From assembly GCA_001897615.1 (NCBI GenBank), contig MKTG01000050.1, positions 25,539-79,868 on the forward strand: a DNA stretch of 54,330 nucleotides, written 5' to 3'. The DNA comes from Burkholderiales bacterium 68-10. GTDB lineage: Bacteria > Pseudomonadota > Gammaproteobacteria > Burkholderiales > Burkholderiaceae_C. The notes under the pieces were generated by a model, which searched no databases, was not told the DNA's origin, and worked only from the letters and a program-made list of their open reading frames with translations. Numbering within the stretch: the first letter of the stretch is position 1; the number at the start of each line of letters is the position of its first letter. The position numbers were made by a program, and so were the translations under genes. Of this stretch, positions 14,406-33,727 are shown one piece after another.

Positions 14406-14957
14406 CGCAACACCGCAAACAATGCGGGCGAGAGCCAGTTCCTATTGCGTGCGGCCTACATGATGATGTCCGCACTACATTGACCGGGCAGTTGCCAAGA
14501 CCGATGGGCTTCGTACATCGGCACCCCTAACAGCGCAGGTTCCTGCAAGCGCTGGCCCAACAGGGTGGAGCCACCCCAGGTATGCCCAGGCTCCGACCGC
14601 ATACCGACCCTACCCAAGGGCGGAGCCTTCTTCGTCTGTTTGAACTCATCCCTACCGCGCCGTCTGGCGCACTGTCCTTTGCAGCAATTGCCTGTGCGCG
14701 ACGCACAGGGTTCCCGCTGCATGTCTCATCCCACTCACCTCATAGGAGGACTCGTCCACGTTCACAACACTTTCGTCTTGCATTACCTCCGTCTGGACTT
14801 CCAACAGGGAGCAAGACGGACGCCTCATTCGAGGCCCTGGTGTCTCCTGAACACCATGCCCTTGCCCTCACGGGATCTCGCCTTGGCGAGTTGGCACCAA
14901 CACTAACCACTGAATTTCAGGACAACGCAGTACGGTGCTTTGTTTGGAGACCGGAAG

Positions 14958-15821
14958 ATGGACGACTTGACCTACACACTGCGGCAGTTATGCCAGCGCA
15001 ACCGTGACGGTAGCTACAACACACAGGCCGACCGGGTGCGTTCTCTCGCACTGGCTGCGCGGCAACTGCGCGAGGCCGGTTTCCGGCAGATGAAGGCTTC
15101 GTCGCTCAAGGGCAAGCACGTCCAGGCGCTGCTGGAACGCTGGCAGGGAGAAGGCTTGTCGTCCGGCACCATCAAGAATCGGCTTTCTCATCTGCGCTGG
15201 TGGGCCGAGAAGATCGGCAAGTCGGGCATCTTGCCGGCGGACAATATGCAGCTTGGCGTGGCCGAGCGCCGCTATGTGACCAACGTCAGCAAGGCCAGGG
15301 AACTGGGCACAGGTCTTGAACAGATTACCGATGTCCACGTGCGCATGAGCCTTCAGCTACAGGCCGCCTTCGGATTGCGTCGGGAGGAAGCGATCAAGTT
15401 GCAGCCCAGTTACGCAGATCGGAGCGACCACATCGCCCTCAAGGGATCGTGGACCAAGGGCGGCCGGGAGCGAACGGTGCCCATCACCACGACAGAGCAA
15501 CGCGACGTGCTCCAGGCAGCACACCACCTGGCAGGCACAGGGTCATTGATCCCGGCAAACAAGACCTACATCCAGCAGCGGCACGTCTACGATGGTCAGT
15601 GCAAGGCGGCGGGGCTGAGCCATATGCATGGCCTTCGCCATCAGTATGCGCAAAGCCGCTATGAGACTCTGACGGGGTGGCCTGCACCAGCAGCGGGTGG
15701 GCCACCCGTCAGAACGCTGAGCGATACACAGCGAACCCAGGATACCGCAGCACGACAAATCATCAGCCGAGAGCTTGGACACGAACGGCTGCAAGTTACT
15801 GCTGTTTATCTCGGAAGATAA
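14958..15821 (+). CDS. Tyrosine recombinase / integrase domain-containing protein (ICE-associated type)
   Basis: FGLRREEA (Arg), MHGLRHQYAQ (HxxR), ELGHERLQVTAVYLGR (C-terminal Tyr) catalytic pattern. Confidence 0.8.
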   Translation: MDDLTYTLRQLCQRNRDGSYNTQADRVRSLALAARQLREAGFRQMKASSLKGKHVQALLERWQGEGLSSGTIKNRLSHLRWWAEKIGKSGILPADNMQLGVAERRYVTNVSKARELGTGLEQITDVHVRMSLQLQAAFGLRREEAIKLQPSYADRSDHIALKGSWTKGGRERTVPITTTEQRDVLQAAHHLAGTGSLIPANKTYIQQRHVYDGQCKAAGLSHMHGLRHQYAQSRYETLTGWPAPAAGGPPVRTLSDTQRTQDTAARQIISRELGHERLQVTAVYLGR

Positions 15822-18930: not shown

Positions 18931-20829
18931 TCAAATGCTCTTCACTTCGGTGGATGGCGACAAGAGCTTAAAGATTTGCTCCACGTTGATCTTGACGGCG
19001 CTGTCCTTGAATCCGGCGTCGCGGAACACTACGCGCAGCGGCTTGTAGGTGGCCAGGTCCTTGACAAAGGCTTCGTCGATGCCGCCGTGCGCATCAAAGC
19101 AGGCGGCGAGCGCCGGGTTGCCATCCAAACTCGCGTCCACGAAGAACACCTCCTTGCCCTGGACGACCTTCTTCTCGATGGGCAGGGCGAGGTCAACGCC
19201 CCAGTCCAGCATCACCTGGAACAGCAGGTCTTCCGCCGTGCGGTCAGGCTTGATGTTGTCCACGAACAAGTCGAGATTGGCCTTGTCCAGTGCGTCGGGG
19301 GAGTAATACACGTCGGCCATGTTGGATGTGTCGATCTTGAGGACGCGAAAGCCGAGGTCGAGTGTCCTGGATTTATCACTTTCACTCAGTTCTTTGGCCA
19401 CATTGCGTATCCGTCTCTGCCCCATTTCAAAGATCGATGCCATGCCAAGCTCAGGCTTTGGAAGCGGCTCGGAAATCTGCACACCAATGAAACGTCGATT
19501 GCCACCGTCCTCGGCGTTTTGCTTCAGTACGGCATGGGCCGTGGTGGCGCTTCCACTAAAGAAGTCCAAAACAACATCGTCGCTGCTTGGGCTCGTCGCC
19601 AGTTGTAGGACTCGCTGCAATAGTTCAACTGGCTTTACTGAGTTGAGAACATTTTCTGTCTCTTCGAATGAAACGTATTTCAGCAAAGTCTTCTTCGCGT
19701 CCTGCGTGTGGCCCACTTCACTGTAAAACCAAAGGGTTTGCGGTGTTCTACCTTGCTTGACTTCAGTCAGAAATCGCTTAAGGCGGGGCATATTGTCGCC
19801 ATTAGCACCCCACCAAATTCGATTATCTGAATCCAGCTTTTTGAAGTTTTCTTCACTCACCCGCCAGTAACTTCCCTTCGGCGGCCCATCGATCACACGG
19901 CCGGAAGGGCACTTCACGGAATAGAGTCCCGCATCGTATCTGTTGCGTGCAGTGAGGTTATCGGATTGCCATACGCCACGAGGATCATTGTCAGGATTTT
20001 TATATCTAGCAATCATCTCATCGGTTTGTGGTAGAAGATTGGGTGTCCAACTCTCGCCATTCTTTGCATAAACCAAAACATAGTCGTGATCCTCCGAGAA
20101 CCATCGTGCGCTGTTCTTGGGAGAGAATACTTTCTGCCAGATGATCTGTGCAACAAAGTTCTCCTCGCCGAACACTTCGCTACATGCCTTGCGCAGATTA
20201 TCGACTTCATTGTCGTCAATTGAGATGAAGACGACACCGTCGTCTTTGAGCAAGTTCCTTGCAAGCCGAAGGCGCGCATAGATCATGCTCAACCAGTCCG
20301 AATGGAAGCGGCCATTGGCCTCCGTATTGGCGACCAAACGACCACCTTGCTCATCGACCTGGTTGGATTCAATCAGATAGCTTTCGGAGTCCTCGCTGAA
20401 GTCATCGTCGTAGATGAAGTCTCGGCCCGTATTGTATGGCGGGTCGATATAAATCAGCTTCACCTTGCCCAGATACGTTTCCTGCAGCAGCTTCAACGCA
20501 TCCAGGTTGTCGCCCTCGATGAACAGGTTCTTCGTGGTATCGAAGTCCACGCTTTCCTCGCGCACCGGGCGAAGTGTCTTGGCAATCGGCGCATTGGCCG
20601 TCAGCAGCGCCTCGCGCTTGCCCGGCCAGTTCAGGTGATACCGCTCCTGCGGCCCTTCCACGATAACGTCGGACAGCTCCTGCCGAAGCTGGTCGAAATC
20701 CACCGCCAGTTTCACACTGCCGTCTTCGCCCTTGGCTTCCGTCATGCAGCCGGGGAACATCTCGCGAATACGGGCGATGTTGTCTTCGGTCAGGTTGGGC
20801 GAGTGCATTTTCAATTTATTCATGGGCAA
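18931..20829 (-). CDS. mod: Type III DNA methyltransferase (Mod), beta-class N6-adenine/N4-cytosine
   Basis: [10 protein letters not shown] (motif IV) N-terminal to [13 protein letters not shown] (motif I); 10 nt upstream of res. Confidence 0.93.
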
Positions 20830-20875: not shown

Positions 20876-23074
20876 CTAAAACGGAATATCGTCATCTTCA
20901 GCTGCGGTATCAGCATCTTCCGCTTCAACCAACGGAGTCTGATTGGCTTCACCTGCACCGGTTTGTTGCCAATCAGTCGCGATCTCCTGCCAGTCCACAC
21001 TGCGTTCAATTTTCTGGCCGTGCTCACTTCCCTCCAGCCCTTCACCAGACCACACTGCCCAGAAGTCGGGATCATCTGATTTGGGGCGTTGATCCTTGGG
21101 CAAGCTATTCATCTGCACCAGGACGGGAAGCTCAGATGCCCATCCCAAAAGAATGGCGTTGCGAGAGGGTAACGACGGCAAGTCGCGCAGCAGGCCACGC
21201 AGGTTGTCCGGCACCAGCTTGTGAACCAGTTCCTGATCACGGTCGTTGCTGATGCGATGTAGTAGATAGCTATTGCACTGGGACAAGACGGTGGGCGACA
21301 GCTCGCTGGGGCGTTGCGAAGACAACACCAGACCCAAGCCGAACTTACGGCCCTCTCTGGCAATTTTCTCGAACACCTGGCAGCAGATGGCTGCGGAGTT
21401 CTGGTTCTCCGCATCATCGTGATAGCGCTTAATGAAGGTGTGCGCTTCTTCCATGACCAAGACGGTAGGCAAGATCTTACCCGCATTGAGCTTACGGTAG
21501 CGTTGCAACGATTCCAGCGTCATACGGGCGATAACGGCAGTAATGATATGAACCACTTCCGCGGGAACCAGCGAAAGGTCAATCACCGTCACGGAACCGT
21601 TTGAAGCTTGGTTGTTACCAAGATAGTCACTCAACCAGTTGTCAAGATTTATGCCGTCCGTGTTAGAGATGATTGAGCGCATCCGGGTGTCGGACAAGAG
21701 TGTGCGAATGCGGGATACCAAAAAATCAACAAACTGACTGGCGTTTTCTTGTTCCGCCAAAATTTCTAGGTGGTCTGGGAGCTGAGAACCATCAAAGGCT
21801 ATTGGCACGTCCTCATCTGGCCCATCGTGAAGCAGAATGCCTCCGACAGTTTCAACTGAGGATTCCAGTGCTGTGATGATTCCCTGAACGTGAGCTTCAT
21901 TAAAAGCACGATAATATTCAATCGTCTCGCCATTTTTAACAAAGCTGTGGTGTGCGGCTCCTAAAGCAGTATTGATTGCCTCTAAGGCTTCATCTAGCTT
22001 GTTATCTCCATGTATGGCTATCTTCCCTTGTAAATCTGTGGCAATTGCCTTCAGGCGGAAGCCAAACTTCGATTCATCGGTCTGGATATCACCTGAACGC
22101 AGATCCCGGCGTGTTGAAATTAATCGAGATGAAAGATAACGGCGTAGTGCGAGCTTCTCTTCTTCCGGCGAGGTAGTCGAAATGGCCCTTCCTGCTTTGA
22201 CATCTCGCAGCGCACGCCGAAGCAGCGGGCGTTGCATCTTTGCACTGGCTTGAGTAAATGCACTCCATTCGGCGCTGTTCCAGAACCATAAGGGCACCTG
22301 GAGTTGCTCAATATCTTCAGAGTTTTCAGGTGGATCGACCGCAAACACCCGTACCTTTCCCATGCCTTTGAAGGTATTCGCGTATTCGCCATTGGGGTCA
22401 AGCACAATGAAACGGGCATTTGGGTCGGCTCCGTTGCGTGCCTTTCTGGCCGCATCCATCGACCAGCGAACCAAGCCAGCAACCGAACACGATTTGCCGC
22501 TGCCCGTATTGCCCAGGACAGCTAAATGACGACCGAAGAGACGATCAGGGTCGATCTTCACCTCTGCATTGGCCGCCAAAGGACTGACGCCGATTTTGAC
22601 GCGGCGATTCTCTCCCGACTCGACGATGGCGCGCAGCTGATCTTGCGTTGGCAGTAGCACCTGGTCACCCACCGAGGGGTAAGCCTGTACGCCGCGCTTA
22701 AACTCGTAGTGATCCTTGTCGCTGTCGCCGCCTGTGTAAGACAGAATCCCCAGCGGGTTCAGGCTCATCTTGCGCAGTGGATACGGCAGATCCACCAGAC
22801 CAAAGTCCTGCATTCCCTTACGCTTGGGGTATTGCGAACGCTCGACCGTGATCCATTCCACCTGTGCGACCAAGTAACCTTGCTCACCAGGTGCGAGCAC
22901 ATAACCATTGATGCGGGGGAATGGGCGCGGCGTGCCAGTATTGAGGGAAACACTGCCTGGCGCTTCTATGTCCAGCAAGACCTTGATCTCATCGGGCGAG
23001 ACGAAATCAATCGTACCTATGCGCAGAGCGTCAGCATGCGCCAGTGGAGACAGGCTCATAGCTGGTCGCTCCAA
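20876..23074 (-). CDS. HerA-like ATPase/translocase (DUF87)
   Basis: 732 aa; GNTGSGKSCSVAGL Walker A; VLVMEEAHTFIKRYHDDAENQN; GLGLVLSSQRPSELSPTVLSQCN. Confidence 0.88.
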   Translation of the reverse strand: MERPAMSLSPLAHADALRIGTIDFVSPDEIKVLLDIEAPGSVSLNTGTPRPFPRINGYVLAPGEQGYLVAQVEWITVERSQYPKRKGMQDFGLVDLPYPLRKMSLNPLGILSYTGGDSDKDHYEFKRGVQAYPSVGDQVLLPTQDQLRAIVESGENRRVKIGVSPLAANAEVKIDPDRLFGRHLAVLGNTGSGKSCSVAGLVRWSMDAARKARNGADPNARFIVLDPNGEYANTFKGMGKVRVFAVDPPENSEDIEQLQVPLWFWNSAEWSAFTQASAKMQRPLLRRALRDVKAGRAISTTSPEEEKLALRRYLSSRLISTRRDLRSGDIQTDESKFGFRLKAIATDLQGKIAIHGDNKLDEALEAINTALGAAHHSFVKNGETIEYYRAFNEAHVQGIITALESSVETVGGILLHDGPDEDVPIAFDGSQLPDHLEILAEQENASQFVDFLVSRIRTLLSDTRMRSIISNTDGINLDNWLSDYLGNNQASNGSVTVIDLSLVPAEVVHIITAVIARMTLESLQRYRKLNAGKILPTVLVMEEAHTFIKRYHDDAENQNSAAICCQVFEKIAREGRKFGLGLVLSSQRPSELSPTVLSQCNSYLLHRISNDRDQELVHKLVPDNLRGLLRDLPSLPSRNAILLGWASELPVLVQMNSLPKDQRPKSDDPDFWAVWSGEGLEGSEHGQKIERSVDWQEIATDWQQTGAGEANQTPLVEAEDADTAAEDDDIPF

Positions 23075-23642
23075 TCTTCAGCGGCTTGTCCCTGGGGCTT
23101 GGGAGCACTTTGCTGAGTGGCAAAGCGCTGCTTGAGAAGTTCGCTCATGCGGAACGTCGTCTTGTCAATCGCAGCCTTGGGCAGGAAGTTTGCCGTTAAT
23201 GTCGTCAAGTCAGCCAGTGCTGGACCAATCAGTAAACTAATTTGCGATGGTCGGCCGATCTCTTCATAGGTTTTCATGATGCGGTCAAGCGGATCATCGC
23301 GCGAAATCACAACCAAGTGCGTAGACGGGATGGTGAGCATGTCACGGATCACCCGGTTGATATGCTCGTCACCAAAGCTATAGCCGTATGTAACTAGGGT
23401 GCTATTCGGTCGGCACACTGCGGCTGCCAAGTCTCGGAACAACTCCACATAGGGATAGTCTGCAGTTTCCCTGTCCTTGGCGGCGTTGGGGTAGATCATC
23501 AGCCTGTGGGCCGTTGCCCCGCCCAAGCCCGGAGCCTGCAAATACGGCTCAACTGTGTCGGCTCCAAAAGGCAGGCCGATTCGGCGAATATCCTTGCCGG
23601 TCTGCACCCAATCCACAGAACCATGCAGCTTGGTGTCAGCGA

Positions 23643-23804
23643 CCGGCATATACCGGCCACCCCGGAGTCGGCATAAACCGGCCAGAGCCCGACCGGCGGC
23701 GCGCAGTCGGAGTCGGCATATACCGGCCAGCGCGTAGTCGGCATATATCGGCCAGGCCGTAGCCGGCGTAATCCGGCCACGGCGCAGCCGGCATATACCG
23801 GCCA
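23643..23804. repeat. Six-copy IS21 left-end repeat array (CCGGCATATACCGGCCA consensus)
   Basis: Copies start at 23643, 23668, 23713, 23738, 23763, 23788; two inverted copies at the right end (26287-26303, 26311-26327). Confidence 0.85.
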
Positions 23805-23900
23805 GCGGCGCCGTCGCGAGCGTCTCGAGATCTCTGACCCGATCGCTACCCTGCGAGCTTTTTGCTCGAGGGGGTCGCGGTGGGTCGCAGGAGGATCGAG

Positions 23901-25430
23901 ATGTTCCAGTACCGTCAGGTTCTCGTGCGCTTGCGCGCCGGGGACACCACGCGCGAGATCGCCCGCTCCGGTCTCATGGGGCGCGACAAGGCCGGCGAGC
24001 TGCGCACCCTGGCCCTGAGCCGCGGCTGGCTCGACGCCGGCGCCGAGCTGCCGGACGATCAGGCGATCGCCGCCGCGCTCAAGCCCGCCCGACGCGCCTC
24101 GTCCACCGTCTCGGCCGTCGAGCCCTTTCGCGAGGTCGTGCTGCGCTGGGTCCAGGCCGGCGTGCAGAGCCGGGCCATCCACGCCGCGCTGCGCCGCGAG
24201 CACGGCTTTTCCGGCAGCTACTCGGCTGTGGTGCGGATGGCGCGCTCGCTGCGCGCCGCACAGCCACCCGAGGTCACGGTGCGGCTGAGCTTCGCGCCGG
24301 CCGAGGCCGCGCAGGTCGACTTCGGCGCCGGACCGGTGCTCATGCACCCGGACGGCAAGCCGCGGCGCACCTGGGCGTTCGTCATGACGCTGTGCCACAG
24401 CCGCCATCAGTACGTCGAGTTCGTCTGGGACCAGAGCTCGGCCACCTGGCTGGGCTGCCACCGCCGCGCCTTCGAATGGTTCGACGGCGTGCCCGAGCGC
24501 GTCATCGTCGACAACGCCAAGTGCGCCATCGTCAAGGCCTGCCGGCACGATCCGCTCGTGCAGCGCGCCTACGCCGAGTGTGCAGAGGGCTACGGGTTCC
24601 GTATCGAGGCCTGCCCGCCGCATGACCCGCAGAAGAAGGGCATCGTCGAGTCCGGCGTCAAGTACCTCAAGGGCAACTTCCTGCCCACGCGCAGCTTCCG
24701 CGATCTCGCTGACCTGAACCGCCAGGCGCGCGACTGGGTCCTGCTCGAAGCCGGCGAGCGCATCCACGGCACCACGCGCGAGAAGCCGCTGACGCTCTTC
24801 GCGCTCGAGCGCCCGCTGATGCGCCGGCTGCCGCCCGTGGCGCCGGACCTGGGCACCTGGCACAGCGTGGTCGTGCACCGCGACTGCCACGTCCAGTTCG
24901 CCCGCGCCTACTACTCGGCCCCGTTCGCCCTGGCCGGCAAGACCCTGTGGCTGCGCGCCACCGACGCCGCCGTCGCCCTGTACCAGGACTACCGCCACCT
25001 CTACACGCACCTGCGCGCACGGCGCCCCGGCGAGCGCATGACCAATGCCGACCACCTGCCGCCGGACGCCCGTGCCTTCTACCGCCACGACCGGCGCTGG
25101 TGCCATGAGCGGGCGCTGGCCATCGGCCCGCACTGTGCCCAACTGATCGACCACCTGCTCTCGGATCGCATCGCCGAGCGGCTTCGCGCCGCCCAGTCCG
25201 TGATCGCGCTGGCCCAGCGCTACGGCGCCCAGCGCGTGGAAGCCGCATGCCAGCGCGCCATCGCGCACGACAGCCCGTACTACGTCACCGTCAAGACGAT
25301 GCTGGCCACTGGCGCCGATCTCGCGCCGATCGCCTCGGTCGAGACGCCCGGAGGCTACCAGCGCACCCGGTTCACCCGCAGCGCCGCCGATCTGTTCTCC
25401 AACGCCCCCGCCACCCCCACCCTTCAGTAA
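23901..25430 (+). CDS. istA: IS21 family transposase IstA
   Basis: DDE integrase core (AAQVDFGAGPV, IVDNAKCAIV, KKGIVESGVKYLKGNF). Confidence 0.93.
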   Translation: MFQYRQVLVRLRAGDTTREIARSGLMGRDKAGELRTLALSRGWLDAGAELPDDQAIAAALKPARRASSTVSAVEPFREVVLRWVQAGVQSRAIHAALRREHGFSGSYSAVVRMARSLRAAQPPEVTVRLSFAPAEAAQVDFGAGPVLMHPDGKPRRTWAFVMTLCHSRHQYVEFVWDQSSATWLGCHRRAFEWFDGVPERVIVDNAKCAIVKACRHDPLVQRAYAECAEGYGFRIEACPPHDPQKKGIVESGVKYLKGNFLPTRSFRDLADLNRQARDWVLLEAGERIHGTTREKPLTLFALERPLMRRLPPVAPDLGTWHSVVVHRDCHVQFARAYYSAPFALAGKTLWLRATDAAVALYQDYRHLYTHLRARRPGERMTNADHLPPDARAFYRHDRRWCHERALAIGPHCAQLIDHLLSDRIAERLRAAQSVIALAQRYGAQRVEAACQRAIAHDSPYYVTVKTMLATGADLAPIASVETPGGYQRTRFTRSAADLFSNAPATPTLQ

Positions 25431-25445
25431 CAGGAGCCATCGTCC

Positions 25446-26240
25446 ATGACCACCTTCAACCCCATGCCCGAACTCGCCCCGCAGCTCAAGCAGCTTCGCC
25501 TGTCCGGCATCCTCGATTCCCTCGAGTCGCGAAACCGCCAGGCCATCGAGGGCAAGCTCGCCTACACCGAGTTCCTTGCCATGCTCATCGGCGACGAAGT
25601 CGCACGGCGCGAGAACAAGAAGTTCGACATGCGCCTGCGCCGCGCGCAGTTCCGCACCACCAAGACCCTGGAGCAGTTCGACTTCGAGCGCGTGCCCACC
25701 CTGAACCGCGCGCTGCTCCAGGACCTGGCCGCCGGCCGCTACATCCACGAGAACGCGCCCGTGCTCATCGTGGGGCCCAGCGGGGTCGGCAAGAGCCACC
25801 TGGCCCAGGCGCTGGGCCACTGCGCGGTGCGCCAGGGCGTGGACGTCACCTTCACCACCTGCACCGCGCTCACCCAGTCGCTCAACGCCGCACGCGCCAC
25901 CGGCATCTACGATCGAAAGATCGGCGCGCTCGCGCGCGTCGGGCTGCTGATCATCGACGACTTCGGCCTCAAGCCGCTGCGCGCACCCGCCGACGAGGAT
26001 CTCCATGACCTGATCGCCGAGCGCTACGAGCGCGCTCCCACCCTCGTCACCAGCAACCTCGACTTCGAGGAATGGGACCAGGCCTTCGCCACCAACCGCC
26101 TGCTGGCCAGCGCCACGATCGACCGGCTGCGCCATAACGCCTACTGCCTCGAACTCGACGGCCGCTCGTACCGCGACCCGAAGGTCGCTCCGGCACCGAA
26201 AAAGGCCGCCGATCGCGCCCCGAAAACTGCGGCAAAATGA
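25446..26240 (+). CDS. istB: IS21 family helper ATPase IstB
   Basis: GPSGVGKSHLAQALGH Walker A, LLIIDDFGLKPL Walker B. Confidence 0.95.
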   Translation: MTTFNPMPELAPQLKQLRLSGILDSLESRNRQAIEGKLAYTEFLAMLIGDEVARRENKKFDMRLRRAQFRTTKTLEQFDFERVPTLNRALLQDLAAGRYIHENAPVLIVGPSGVGKSHLAQALGHCAVRQGVDVTFTTCTALTQSLNAARATGIYDRKIGALARVGLLIIDDFGLKPLRAPADEDLHDLIAERYERAPTLVTSNLDFEEWDQAFATNRLLASATIDRLRHNAYCLELDGRSYRDPKVAPAPKKAADRAPKTAAK

Positions 26241-27175
26241 CCCACTGAACCAACCCTCTCGGGACGCTTCACGGCAACCGCCACACTGGCCGGTATATGC
26301 CGACTCCCACTGGCCGATTTATGCCGGCTGCTGACACTTGGTGAAGCGAGCGACACCCTCCAGATACCGGGGTTCGCCACGGATACCCGGTGGGTTGTAG
26401 TGCATATCCAGATCAAGCCTAGAGGAACGGAAAATGGGCATTAGGTTGCCAAGAAAGCGATCCAGAAGATGCACGCCAGCCAGTTCCGCTCCAGCTTCAA
26501 TCAGCCTGTCGTAATTGGTCGTAAAAATGCTCAAGCGGTCGCGTGTTCCAATCCGACTTGCGAAGCTCATCAGAAACGTGACCAGTGTGTTGAAGGCTTG
26601 TTCACGTTGGTCGTCCGGAGCGACGGCAATCCCGGCTTCGCTCTTCAGAATGGACTCGGCGAACGTCTGCATTCCCGCTTCGAGTTCCCCGCGTAAGGTG
26701 GCTGCCTGGGCATCTTGAAGTATCTCCATACCACGCAACAGCTCATTTGCCACCCGCAGTTGATCCTCAACGTTGCCCTTTTTCCTTCCAGCCTGGCTTG
26801 CAGACGCTTCGGCTGCTGTGTTGATATTGTCTTGCTGAGTGGTAAGTGGAAGCGCTCCCATACCGGCTGCACCTTTCCCGGCAGCCAAGTAATGCACTGC
26901 ATGAGTGAGGCCCGACCCTGCCAACAGAGACAGGTGCTCAGACTGAAAGAGTGATGTCAGCCACGGCTCGATGTGTTCCCGCAGTTCCTTCTGGCTGAAC
27001 CCTTCCGAACTAACCCAAGATGCTTCACTGCCCTCCTGGAGTTTGAATTTCTTGTTCTCCGATTCGGCAAAGTACAGCGGTTTATCGTCATTTCTGACCT
27101 TGACGATGTTGGGGTAAAGCTCTTCTAAGCTTGTCTGTTTGCTAGTGTTCGGCATGACTTCAGGCTCCTCATTTT

Positions 27176-31135: not shown

Positions 31136-32182
31136 TTACGCTCGCTTGATCCATTTCGCGCCTCGCCCCTTGCCCGTTGATTCGATCAACCCCTCTGATT
31201 TCATCGCCCGCAGCACTAGCCGCACCATGTCCCTGCTTACGCCCGGGCAGGCTTCTTCGATTTCGGAAATCGAAAACGGCAGAGTGCGTCCCAGAACTTC
31301 CGCACGCACCCGGTCGCCTTTGCTGCCACGGCCACGTTCGATGGTGCCGACACGTTCCTCGAACTCACGGTAGGCCCGTAGCAAGGCACCCCAGAAATAG
31401 TCGAGCCATGGCTTTACGTCGTGCTGCCCCTGGTGCCAGCCCTGCGAGCTGGCTTCCAGCGTCTCGTAATAGCCTTCCTTGGTATCTTCGAAGATGCGTT
31501 CCAAGCTGATGTAGCGACCCACGGCATAGTCGAAGTGGTAGAGCAGCAGCAGGGTCAACAAGCGGGACATGCGGCCGTTACCATCTGGGAACGGGTGAAT
31601 GCACAGGAAGTCGAGCATCGCCAGTGGTGCCAACACCAGCGGGTCGGCCAGGTGCTGATCCAGCGCGGTGGCGTAGCGCCCGGTCAGATCGCCCATGGCC
31701 ATCGGCGTGAGGTGCGCGGCGACTGGCTGGAAACGCAGACGCGAAGTGCCATCCGGGTGACGTTCGATGATGTCGTTATTGGTAGCCTTCCAGCGCCCGC
31801 CTGCCTGCGGCATATAGCGGTACAGCAGGGTGTGCAATTGCAGCACTACGCCCTCGCTGAAGGACATGTGCGCGGCCGATTCGTGGATCAGCGCCAGGGC
31901 GTCACGGTAGCCGGCGATCTCCTGTTCGGAACGGCTCTTTGGCGTTGCGTTGCGGATGACCAGGGACTTCAGCCGCGAGGGTGCTACGACAACACCTTCC
32001 AGCCGGTTAGACGACTCAGTGGACTCCACCACCGCGATCTGGCGCAGGCCCTTTAGGGCTTCGGGCGACTGTGCGGCGTAGAGTTGCTGCTTACCCTGGT
32101 ACTCGCCCAGTGTGCGCAACGTGGCGGCCTGGGTGCCGTCGAAGCGAAGCGCGGCGAGGTACTCGGGTGTGAGCGAGTGCAT
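31136..32182 (-). CDS. Fic family protein with C-terminal winged-helix-like region
   Basis: HPFPDGNGRMSR catalytic motif; N-terminal inhibitory-type SNRLEG ([S/T]xxxE[G/N]); C-terminal RTLPFSISEIEEACPGVSRDMVRLVLRAMKSEGLIESTGKGRGAKW. Confidence 0.92.
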   Translation of the reverse strand: MHSLTPEYLAALRFDGTQAATLRTLGEYQGKQQLYAAQSPEALKGLRQIAVVESTESSNRLEGVVVAPSRLKSLVIRNATPKSRSEQEIAGYRDALALIHESAAHMSFSEGVVLQLHTLLYRYMPQAGGRWKATNNDIIERHPDGTSRLRFQPVAAHLTPMAMGDLTGRYATALDQHLADPLVLAPLAMLDFLCIHPFPDGNGRMSRLLTLLLLYHFDYAVGRYISLERIFEDTKEGYYETLEASSQGWHQGQHDVKPWLDYFWGALLRAYREFEERVGTIERGRGSKGDRVRAEVLGRTLPFSISEIEEACPGVSRDMVRLVLRAMKSEGLIESTGKGRGAKWIKRA

Positions 32183-32515: not shown

Positions 32516-33727
32516 CTATGATGTGCCGCTGCCCTCCGCAGCACTCAGATAGTCCGCCCAGTCCTGCAACAGCGTCCTTCTCTGATCCAGCAGCAGCGCC
32601 TTGTTGTACGTCGCCCGCACCTTGTTGCTTTCCACGTGTGCAAGTTGCCGTTCAATTGCATCAGGCCGATATCCGTTCTCATTGGCCCAGGTCGAAAAGG
32701 TCGTCCGCCAGCAATGCGGTGTCGTGCCCCGGCCCAGGTTCATGTCGCGCATCGCGTAGGTAAGCCGATTTGGCGTGGTGAATCCCTTGCCGCTCCGGTG
32801 TGGGAATAGATAGCGCCCACCACTTGTGATGCGCTGCAAGTCTTTCAGTACCGCTATGGCCTGCGTGGACAATGGGCTGACATGGTCACGCCGCGCTTTC
32901 ATCTTCGCCGCAGGCCGACGCCACAGCGCATCCTCAAAGTCGAACTCGTCCCACTCGGCATCCGCCGCTTCCCCTGGACGGCAGGCGGTCAGCGCAATCA
33001 GCCGCAGACACAAAGAGGTTTCCGGATAGCCCCTGTAGCCGCGCAACTCCTGATAGAACTTCTGGATTTGCTCTCGCGTCATCGCCGCCTTGCTCTCGCT
33101 GAACGGCACGCGCAGCAGCCCGCGCAGGCTGGGAATTGGATTTGCCTCGACCAGCCCCCGCACGACCGCGAACTCGAAGATGGCCGACAGATCGCCTTTG
33201 ACGTGAATCGCCGCCCAGGCTCCGTGGGACTTGCATTCCTCCAGCAGCGGACGAATCTGCTTGACGCCAATGTCGCTCATCGGCATCCCGTCGAACTTGG
33301 GTGACAGGTACTTCCTGATGCGTGACTCTTTCGTCCGGTAAGAACTGAGCGCAAAGACTGGCTTGATCTCGGCCAAGTAAGCCTGCGCCACCTTGGCAAA
33401 AGAGCTTTCACGAGCGCGTTTGCGTTCCTCCAGCACTTCCAGGTTGCGCTGCTTGACCTGCTGCCGTTCATGGGCAGGATGGATGCCTTGCTTGACGAGG
33501 GTTCGCGCTTTCTCGCGAGCTGCGCGCGCCTCCGCAAGGCTTACTTGAGGAAAACCGCCGATAGCAAAGAGGTTCTCCTTGCCTTGCAGGCGGTACTTCC
33601 ACCGCCAGAGCTTGCCGCCGGCGGGCTTGACCAGCAGGAACAAGCCTCCGCCGTCTGATAGTTTCCAATCTCGATCAGTCGATTTGGCCGACCTGACCTT
33701 GAGGTCGGTGAGTAGGTTTTCGGGCAT
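32516..33727 (-). CDS. int: P4-type tyrosine integrase (DUF4102 N-terminus)
   Basis: N-terminal DLKVRSAKSTDRDWKLSDGGGLFLLVKPAGGKLWRWKYR; ALTACRPGEAADAEWDEFD; HCWRTTFSTWA; RQLAHVESNKVRATYNKA. Confidence 0.93.
   Translation of the reverse strand: MPENLLTDLKVRSAKSTDRDWKLSDGGGLFLLVKPAGGKLWRWKYRLQGKENLFAIGGFPQVSLAEARAAREKARTLVKQGIHPAHERQQVKQRNLEVLEERKRARESSFAKVAQAYLAEIKPVFALSSYRTKESRIRKYLSPKFDGMPMSDIGVKQIRPLLEECKSHGAWAAIHVKGDLSAIFEFAVVRGLVEANPIPSLRGLLRVPFSESKAAMTREQIQKFYQELRGYRGYPETSLCLRLIALTACRPGEAADAEWDEFDFEDALWRRPAAKMKARRDHVSPLSTQAIAVLKDLQRITSGGRYLFPHRSGKGFTTPNRLTYAMRDMNLGRGTTPHCWRTTFSTWANENGYRPDAIERQLAHVESNKVRATYNKALLLDQRRTLLQDWADYLSAAEGSGTS

What the first reader, a model, noticed from the sequence alone, without database searches (positions are those of the whole stretch)
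23056..27155. IS21 insertion splits the SIR2 effector exactly at its K|LHGS active-site motif; ORF reconstructs perfectly
Seen: minus-strand nt 27155-26337 (819 nt, 273 codons, ending ...ARFTK) and 23628-23056 (573 nt, 191 codons including stop, starting LHGSVDW...) join in frame when the IS and one TSD copy (2708 bp) are removed, giving 463 aa with LLAGSGLT, TTNYD and KLHGSVDW motifs. The IS separates the TTNYD region from the catalytic-type His, so the NADase should be dead. Inference: insertion may have been selected to disarm a toxic effector, since the neighbouring genes look intact.
Basis: seen in the sequence. Interest (0 to 1): 0.75.

Follow-up and report, generated by a model that had tools for sequence, protein, structure and literature searches.

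The report
Transposon-broken SIR2 effector in defence operon
A mobile element has landed in a bacterial anti-phage NADase gene one codon before its catalytic histidine and almost certainly killed it; the break itself is ordinary, but the broken gene belongs to a two-gene SIR2-HerA cassette that relatives carry inside several different DNA-modification defence operons, and an intact second copy sits in the same genome.

Summary
A complete IS21-family element (23634-26336, 2703 bp, 5-bp target duplication CTTGG) interrupts a minus-strand SIR2 gene between Lys273 and Leu274 of its KLHGS motif. In 58 of 58 relatives the two halves are adjacent with no base between them, and 53 have an uninterrupted full-length frame, so the empty site is natural. 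Asn214 and His275 are invariant in 47 relatives; the equivalent pair is required for defence in Vibrio cholerae. The element separates them, so this copy is almost certainly dead as an NADase.

"Selected to disarm" is not shown. It is one event, the halves show no decay, and loss is tolerable for neutral reasons: the four-gene core (SNF2 helicase, DUF4391, type III Mod, Res) occurs without SIR2-HerA elsewhere, and the genome has a second, intact SIR2-HerA inside a type 3 BREX operon. HerA starts at an ATGA overlap with the SIR2 stop, so the insertion may also lower HerA, Mod and Res.

The more interesting result is that this SIR2-HerA clade is a cassette nested in type III R-M, BREX type 1 and BREX type 3 operons and exchanged between them. 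I found no description of that in the library searched.

The parts
26337..27155 (-). SIR2 N-terminal half (273 aa; contains LLAGSGLT and TTNYD); reads on into the element and stops at 26319 after 5 foreign codons
   Evidence: N half matches PDLC04079 31-251, E 3.4e-83
23056..23628 (-). SIR2 C-terminal half (190 aa, starts LHGSVDW). An ATG inside the element (23649) is in frame and could start a 197-aa fragment
   Evidence: C half matches PDLC04079 252-426, E 4.6e-71; SIR2_2 PF13289 E 1.4e-4, just under cut-off
23634..26336 (+). IS21-family insertion sequence, 2703 bp, inverted ends with several terminal repeats; G+C 0.70, like the chromosome (0.70), while SIR2 is 0.54-0.55
   Evidence: single full copy in the genome
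23629..23633 (.). target-site duplication CTTGG, left copy
26337..26341 (.). target-site duplication CTTGG, right copy
23862..25430 (+). istA transposase of the element
   Evidence: NF033546 260 bits, cut-off 160
25446..26240 (+). istB helper ATPase of the element
   Evidence: NF038214 260 bits, cut-off 200
20876..23059 (-). herA, 727 aa; ATG overlaps the SIR2 stop as ATGA; Walker A GNTGSGKS
   Evidence: PDLC04098 906 bits; motif and junction; overlap conserved in relatives
18931..20829 (-). mod, type III DNA methyltransferase, DPPY motif
   Evidence: PDLC03634 764 bits
15837..18920 (-). res, type III restriction helicase-endonuclease
   Evidence: PDLC03647 1121 bits, RE_endonuc PF19778
27176..27838 (-). 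DUF4391 protein
   Evidence: PF14335 189 bits
27835..31125 (-). SNF2-family helicase (PADLOC C3a139 'HKD+Snf2'; no HKD nuclease motif found in this protein)

Best explanation
A recent transposition of an IS21-family element knocked out the SIR2 NADase of a SIR2-HerA (Nezha-type) cassette. The cassette is nested between DUF4391 and mod of a four-gene type III R-M-like defence operon. Shown: insertion, target duplication, split between the invariant Asn and His, intact frames on both sides. Inferred: no NADase activity, because neither half carries a complete active site. Inferred: the loss was tolerated because the cassette is an optional module of this operon and an intact second SIR2-HerA lies in a type 3 BREX operon of the same genome. 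Inferred and untested: expression of herA, mod and res may be lowered because herA is translationally coupled to SIR2 and transcripts now cross 2.7 kb of antisense element.
For: Structure of the insertion. The halves map to consecutive profile positions and are contiguous in 58/58 relatives. N214 and H275 invariant in 47 relatives; in V. cholerae SIR2, N168A or H227A abolishes defence (PMC11559045), and the His of our C half aligns with residue 227 of E. coli SIR2 8j4u. The top 22 fold matches of an intact relative are all E. coli SIR2-HerA or SIR2. Second intact SIR2-HerA in the same genome, inside brxF-brxC-[SIR2-HerA]-two further genes-pglX-nuclease-brxH-pglZ. Core operon without the cassette in several plasmids. 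Recency: perfect duplication; dN/dS against L011 is 0.09 and 0.06 for the halves and 0.06 for HerA. Element G+C equals the host chromosome while SIR2 and HerA are 0.53-0.55, so it probably jumped in this host lineage.
Against: Loss of activity was not assayed, and a split enzyme could in principle reassemble if both fragments were made. The predicted model is weak around residues 213-276, so the active-site geometry was not checked in three dimensions. No sibling genome shows the empty site in this very strain. dN/dS against L011 averages over the whole divergence and would not detect decay since a recent insertion.
Confidence: 0.88

Rival explanations
1. The insertion was positively selected because an armed SIR2 was costly, for example by self-activation or conflict with the second SIR2-HerA.
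For: SIR2 is hit while the other frames are open. L068 has a frameshifted SIR2 next to an intact HerA while its near-identical relative L049 is intact. Selected inactivation of another suicide system, CBASS, under antifolates is reported (PMC12409362).
Against: One event in one genome. About 53 of 58 relatives keep SIR2 whole, so it is not usually too costly. The element is single-copy and could land anywhere. Redundancy and optionality explain tolerance without selection.
Confidence: 0.2
2. The C-terminal fragment is translated from the ATG inside the element's end (23649), keeping HerA translation coupled and perhaps forming a HerA complex without NADase activity.
For: In-frame ATG a few codons before LHGS gives a 197-aa ORF. 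The ATGA overlap with herA is kept.
Against: No good ribosome-binding site or sigma-70-like promoter in the region; the start lies in RNA structure (z only -1.8).
Confidence: 0.12
3. The insertion acts as a reversible switch: precise excision would rearm the effector.
For: Perfect target duplication and intact istAB.
Against: Precise excision is rare for insertion sequences (own knowledge). No relative carries an element at this site.
Confidence: 0.03
4. Assembly artefact or chimera.
For: Draft genome of 116 contigs.
Against: The element has a single full copy, lies inside a contig with both flanks, has exact ends and a 5-bp duplication.
Confidence: 0.02

Closest known systems
SIR2-HerA / Nezha anti-phage system (E. 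coli, V. cholerae; PDB 8j4u, 8su9, 8sub)
   Same: SIR2-type NADase gene directly followed by herA; invariant Asn and His; HerA Walker A; fold search of an intact relative returns E. coli SIR2-HerA first
   Different: Distant in sequence (about 18% identity in the fold alignment). Below the NCBIfam equivalog cut-off for SIR2_antiphage (75.8 and 24.7 bits for the two halves, cut-off 500). Nested inside modification operons rather than standing alone; this copy is broken
Type III restriction-modification (Mod/Res)
   Same: mod and res adjacent, with strong profile matches
   Different: In this operon type they come with an upstream SNF2-family helicase and DUF4391, and with one or two slots that hold optional genes
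BREX type 3 and type 1
   Same: They host the same SIR2-HerA clade inside their operons, including in this genome
   Different: The window's operon has no BrxC or PglZ; it is not BREX
IS21 family
   Same: istA/istB pair, TG...CA ends, several terminal repeats
   Different: Nothing notable; nearest copies found in the family are 71-81% identical

Membership tests
SIR2-HerA (Nezha) | SIR2 gene immediately upstream of herA on one strand | tested here: met
   ATGA overlap at 23059-23056; 4-bp overlap in 51 of 55 relatives with both genes
SIR2-HerA (Nezha) | NADase catalytic Asn and His | tested here: met
   N214 and H275 invariant in 47 intact relatives; both present in the window, but on separate fragments
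SIR2-HerA (Nezha) | intact SIR2 in this copy | tested here: not met
   interrupted by the element
SIR2-HerA (Nezha) | fold of E. coli SIR2-HerA SIR2 | tested here: met
   Foldseek E 1e-10, probability 1.00, for the intact relative L011, but model pLDDT 66 and TM 0.46
SIR2-HerA (Nezha) | 12:6 complex, NAD+ depletion on infection | not testable with these tools
   needs biochemistry
IS21 family | istA and istB above curated cut-offs | tested here: met
IS21 family | defined ends and short target duplication | tested here: met
   TGTCAGC/GCTGACA and CTTGG
Type III R-M | Mod with N6-methylase motifs and Res with helicase plus endonuclease domain | tested here: met
Type III R-M | methylation and restriction activity | not testable with these tools
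   needs methylome and phage assays
BREX (window operon) | BrxC and PglZ | tested here: not met
   no such match among the operon proteins

The most novel reading that the evidence does not exclude
This SIR2-HerA clade is a mobile plug-in killing module. It is repeatedly inserted at fixed slots inside operons that tell self from non-self DNA by methylation (type III R-M, BREX 1, BREX 3), and it uses the host system's recognition step as its trigger or acts as its backup when restriction fails. The window is then a natural knock-out of the module inside an otherwise intact host operon.
Probability: 0.35. Interest if true: 0.75.

Novelty: new variant of a known kind. Interest (0 to 1): 0.42.

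Why it matters
Insertion sequences breaking defence genes are known (for example IS256 in hsdS of V. cholerae, PMC12409362). The useful part is the context. One genome carries the same effector cassette in two unrelated modification systems, one broken and one intact. Relatives show the cassette moving between BREX and R-M operons while the operons also exist without it. That makes a testable question out of whether an abortive-infection module works alone or is licensed by the modification system around it.

Tried and rejected
Strict sigma-70 promoter scan of the element for an outward promoter: none. Solved-structure search with the N half: no match; the C half matched E. coli SIR2 weakly. 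Structure prediction of the intact Halomonas relative: fold recognised, active-site region too uncertain to measure distances. Search for an HKD nuclease motif in the SNF2 protein: none, so the 'PLD' label is not claimed. Direct repeats near the two integrase genes to find island ends: nothing convincing. Same-genus genomes: flanking genes are present, but hemH and ychF lie far apart there, so the island's empty site could not be read. Plasmid search for the element: only istB fragments at 73-75%. Joining the two halves was left out on purpose; adjacency in relatives answers the same question.

Full report
WHAT IS THERE. The minus-strand reading frame 27155-26337 (273 codons) ends in ...ARFTK and the frame 23628-23056 (190 codons plus stop) begins LHGSVDW. 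Between them lies 23634-26336, a 2703-bp element with ends TGTCAGC...GCTGACA, several terminal repeats of about 20 bp in inverted orientation, and istA and istB on the plus strand above their curated cut-offs. CTTGG is present on both sides.

TEST OF THE SPLIT WITHOUT JOINING IT. I searched the halves apart. The same PADLOC SIR2 profile is matched at 31-251 by the N half and at 252-426 by the C half. A scan of one genome per species gave 58 relatives. In every one the N match and the C match touch with no base between them, and 53 are a single uninterrupted full-length frame reading ...K-LHGS.... The closest, Halomonas citrativorans (L011), is 463 aa long and 89-91% identical. The junction is therefore exactly between Lys273 and Leu274, and homologues do not end there.

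EFFECT ON THE ENZYME. In 47 intact relatives Asn214 of TTNYD and His275 of KLHGS are invariant. In Vibrio cholerae SIR2 the active-site mutations N168A or H227A abolish phage immunity (PMC11559045), and the His of our C half aligns with residue 227 of E. coli SIR2 in 8j4u. The element puts the two residues on different fragments. A predicted model of the intact L011 protein finds E. coli SIR2-HerA structures first, but its confidence is low between residues 213 and 276, so I make no geometric claim. Loss of NADase activity is an inference, a strong one.

EFFECT ON THE NEIGHBOURS. herA begins with an ATG that overlaps the SIR2 stop (ATGA, 23059-23056). The 4-bp overlap is kept in 51 of 55 relatives with both genes, which points to translational coupling. 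After the insertion ribosomes stop five codons inside the element. Restart would need the in-element ATG at 23649, for which I see no good ribosome-binding site, and the region shows no strict sigma-70-like promoter. The neighbouring frames are intact, with their motifs present, but their expression is open.

WHEN AND WHERE. The duplication is perfect. dN/dS against L011 is 0.09 and 0.06 for the two halves, like HerA at 0.06, so there is no visible decay; this comparison would not detect decay since a very recent event. The element's G+C (0.70) equals that of the chromosomal flanks (0.70), whereas the SIR2 halves and HerA are 0.53-0.55. It exists once in the genome, and the nearest copies in the family are 71-81% identical. 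The simplest reading is a single jump after the operon entered this host lineage.

WHY LOSS MAY BE TOLERATED. First, the genome has a second SIR2-HerA, 70-80% identical in SIR2, full length, on another contig. It lies inside an operon with BrxF, BrxC, [SIR2-HerA], two further genes, PglXI, a YhcG nuclease, a BrxH helicase and PglZ, a type 3 BREX set. Second, the window's host operon exists without the cassette. SNF2 helicase - DUF4391 - Mod - Res with nothing between DUF4391 and Mod is found in Variovorax, Methylotuvimicrobium, E. coli, Photobacterium, Acinetobacter and Endozoicomonas records. In Raoultella and Aeromonas the same slot holds an ATP-binding-domain gene instead. So the SIR2-HerA pair is an optional module here.

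A WANDERING CASSETTE. Among the 58 relatives, 37 have SIR2-HerA (SIR2 alone at two contig ends) in a modification operon: 5 in the window's operon type between DUF4391 and mod, 10 in BREX type 3 (mostly between brxC and pglX), 15 in BREX type 1 (between or after pglX parts and before pglZ), and 7 beside other type III mod genes. Neighbours are nearly always on the same strand and spacing is mostly short or overlapping. The assignments rest on profile matches for representatives (L069, L065, L058, L027) and on clustering for the rest; a few are cut by contig ends. On a HerA tree the host-system labels need 20 changes (least possible 4, shuffled mean 31.6). Starred branches force at least 3 changes of the label for the window's operon type, 3 for BREX 3 and 5 for BREX 1. 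The cassette is thus partly inherited with its host system and often exchanged between systems. The sample is biased towards relatives of one query. A large 2026 survey of BREX operons discusses backup nucleases and HerA-containing capture systems but has no mention of SIR2 (PMC12839542), and my searches for SIR2-HerA with BREX gave nothing on nesting. The library lacks most subscription papers, so novelty is provisional.

SELECTED OR NOT. It is a single event; most relatives keep SIR2 whole; and one further case of SIR2 broken beside an intact HerA (L068) may be real or a sequencing error. Hitting the codon before the His is not informative, since an insertion almost anywhere upstream of the C-terminal helices would have the same effect.

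VERDICT. Observation confirmed; mechanism of loss well supported; selection unproven. The insertion alone is ordinary. The nested, exchangeable SIR2-HerA cassette and the broken/intact pair in one genome raise the interest to moderate.

Noticed in passing
L069 (own genome, G000:C107:15000-34999): A complete-looking type 3 BREX operon in the same genome carries a second, intact SIR2-HerA between brxC and pglX.
   Followed up: yes
L065, L019, L020, L031, L039, L050: In BREX type 1 loci pglX is encoded as two genes of about 600 aa, with SIR2-HerA and sometimes other genes sitting between the two parts.
   Followed up: partly
L094, L095: The slot between DUF4391 and mod holds a 2.7-kb ATP-binding-domain gene instead of SIR2-HerA; L095 also has an AAA ATPase plus DUF4276 pair between mod and res.
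   Followed up: partly
L099, L107: IS256 and IS1380 elements lie in or next to mod of the same operon type on plasmids, so insertions into this operon recur in other genes.
   Followed up: no
window 31136-32182: Fic-family gene directly upstream of the SNF2 helicase on the same strand, best PADLOC match SoFic.
   Followed up: no
window 14940-15821 and 32516-33727: Two different tyrosine integrases flank the defence operon, the second next to ychF; no attachment repeats were found.
   Followed up: partly
L015, L016: A DUF2130 gene overlaps the end of herA by 4 bp in the Hydrogenophaga versions of the operon, a possible third cassette gene.
   Followed up: no
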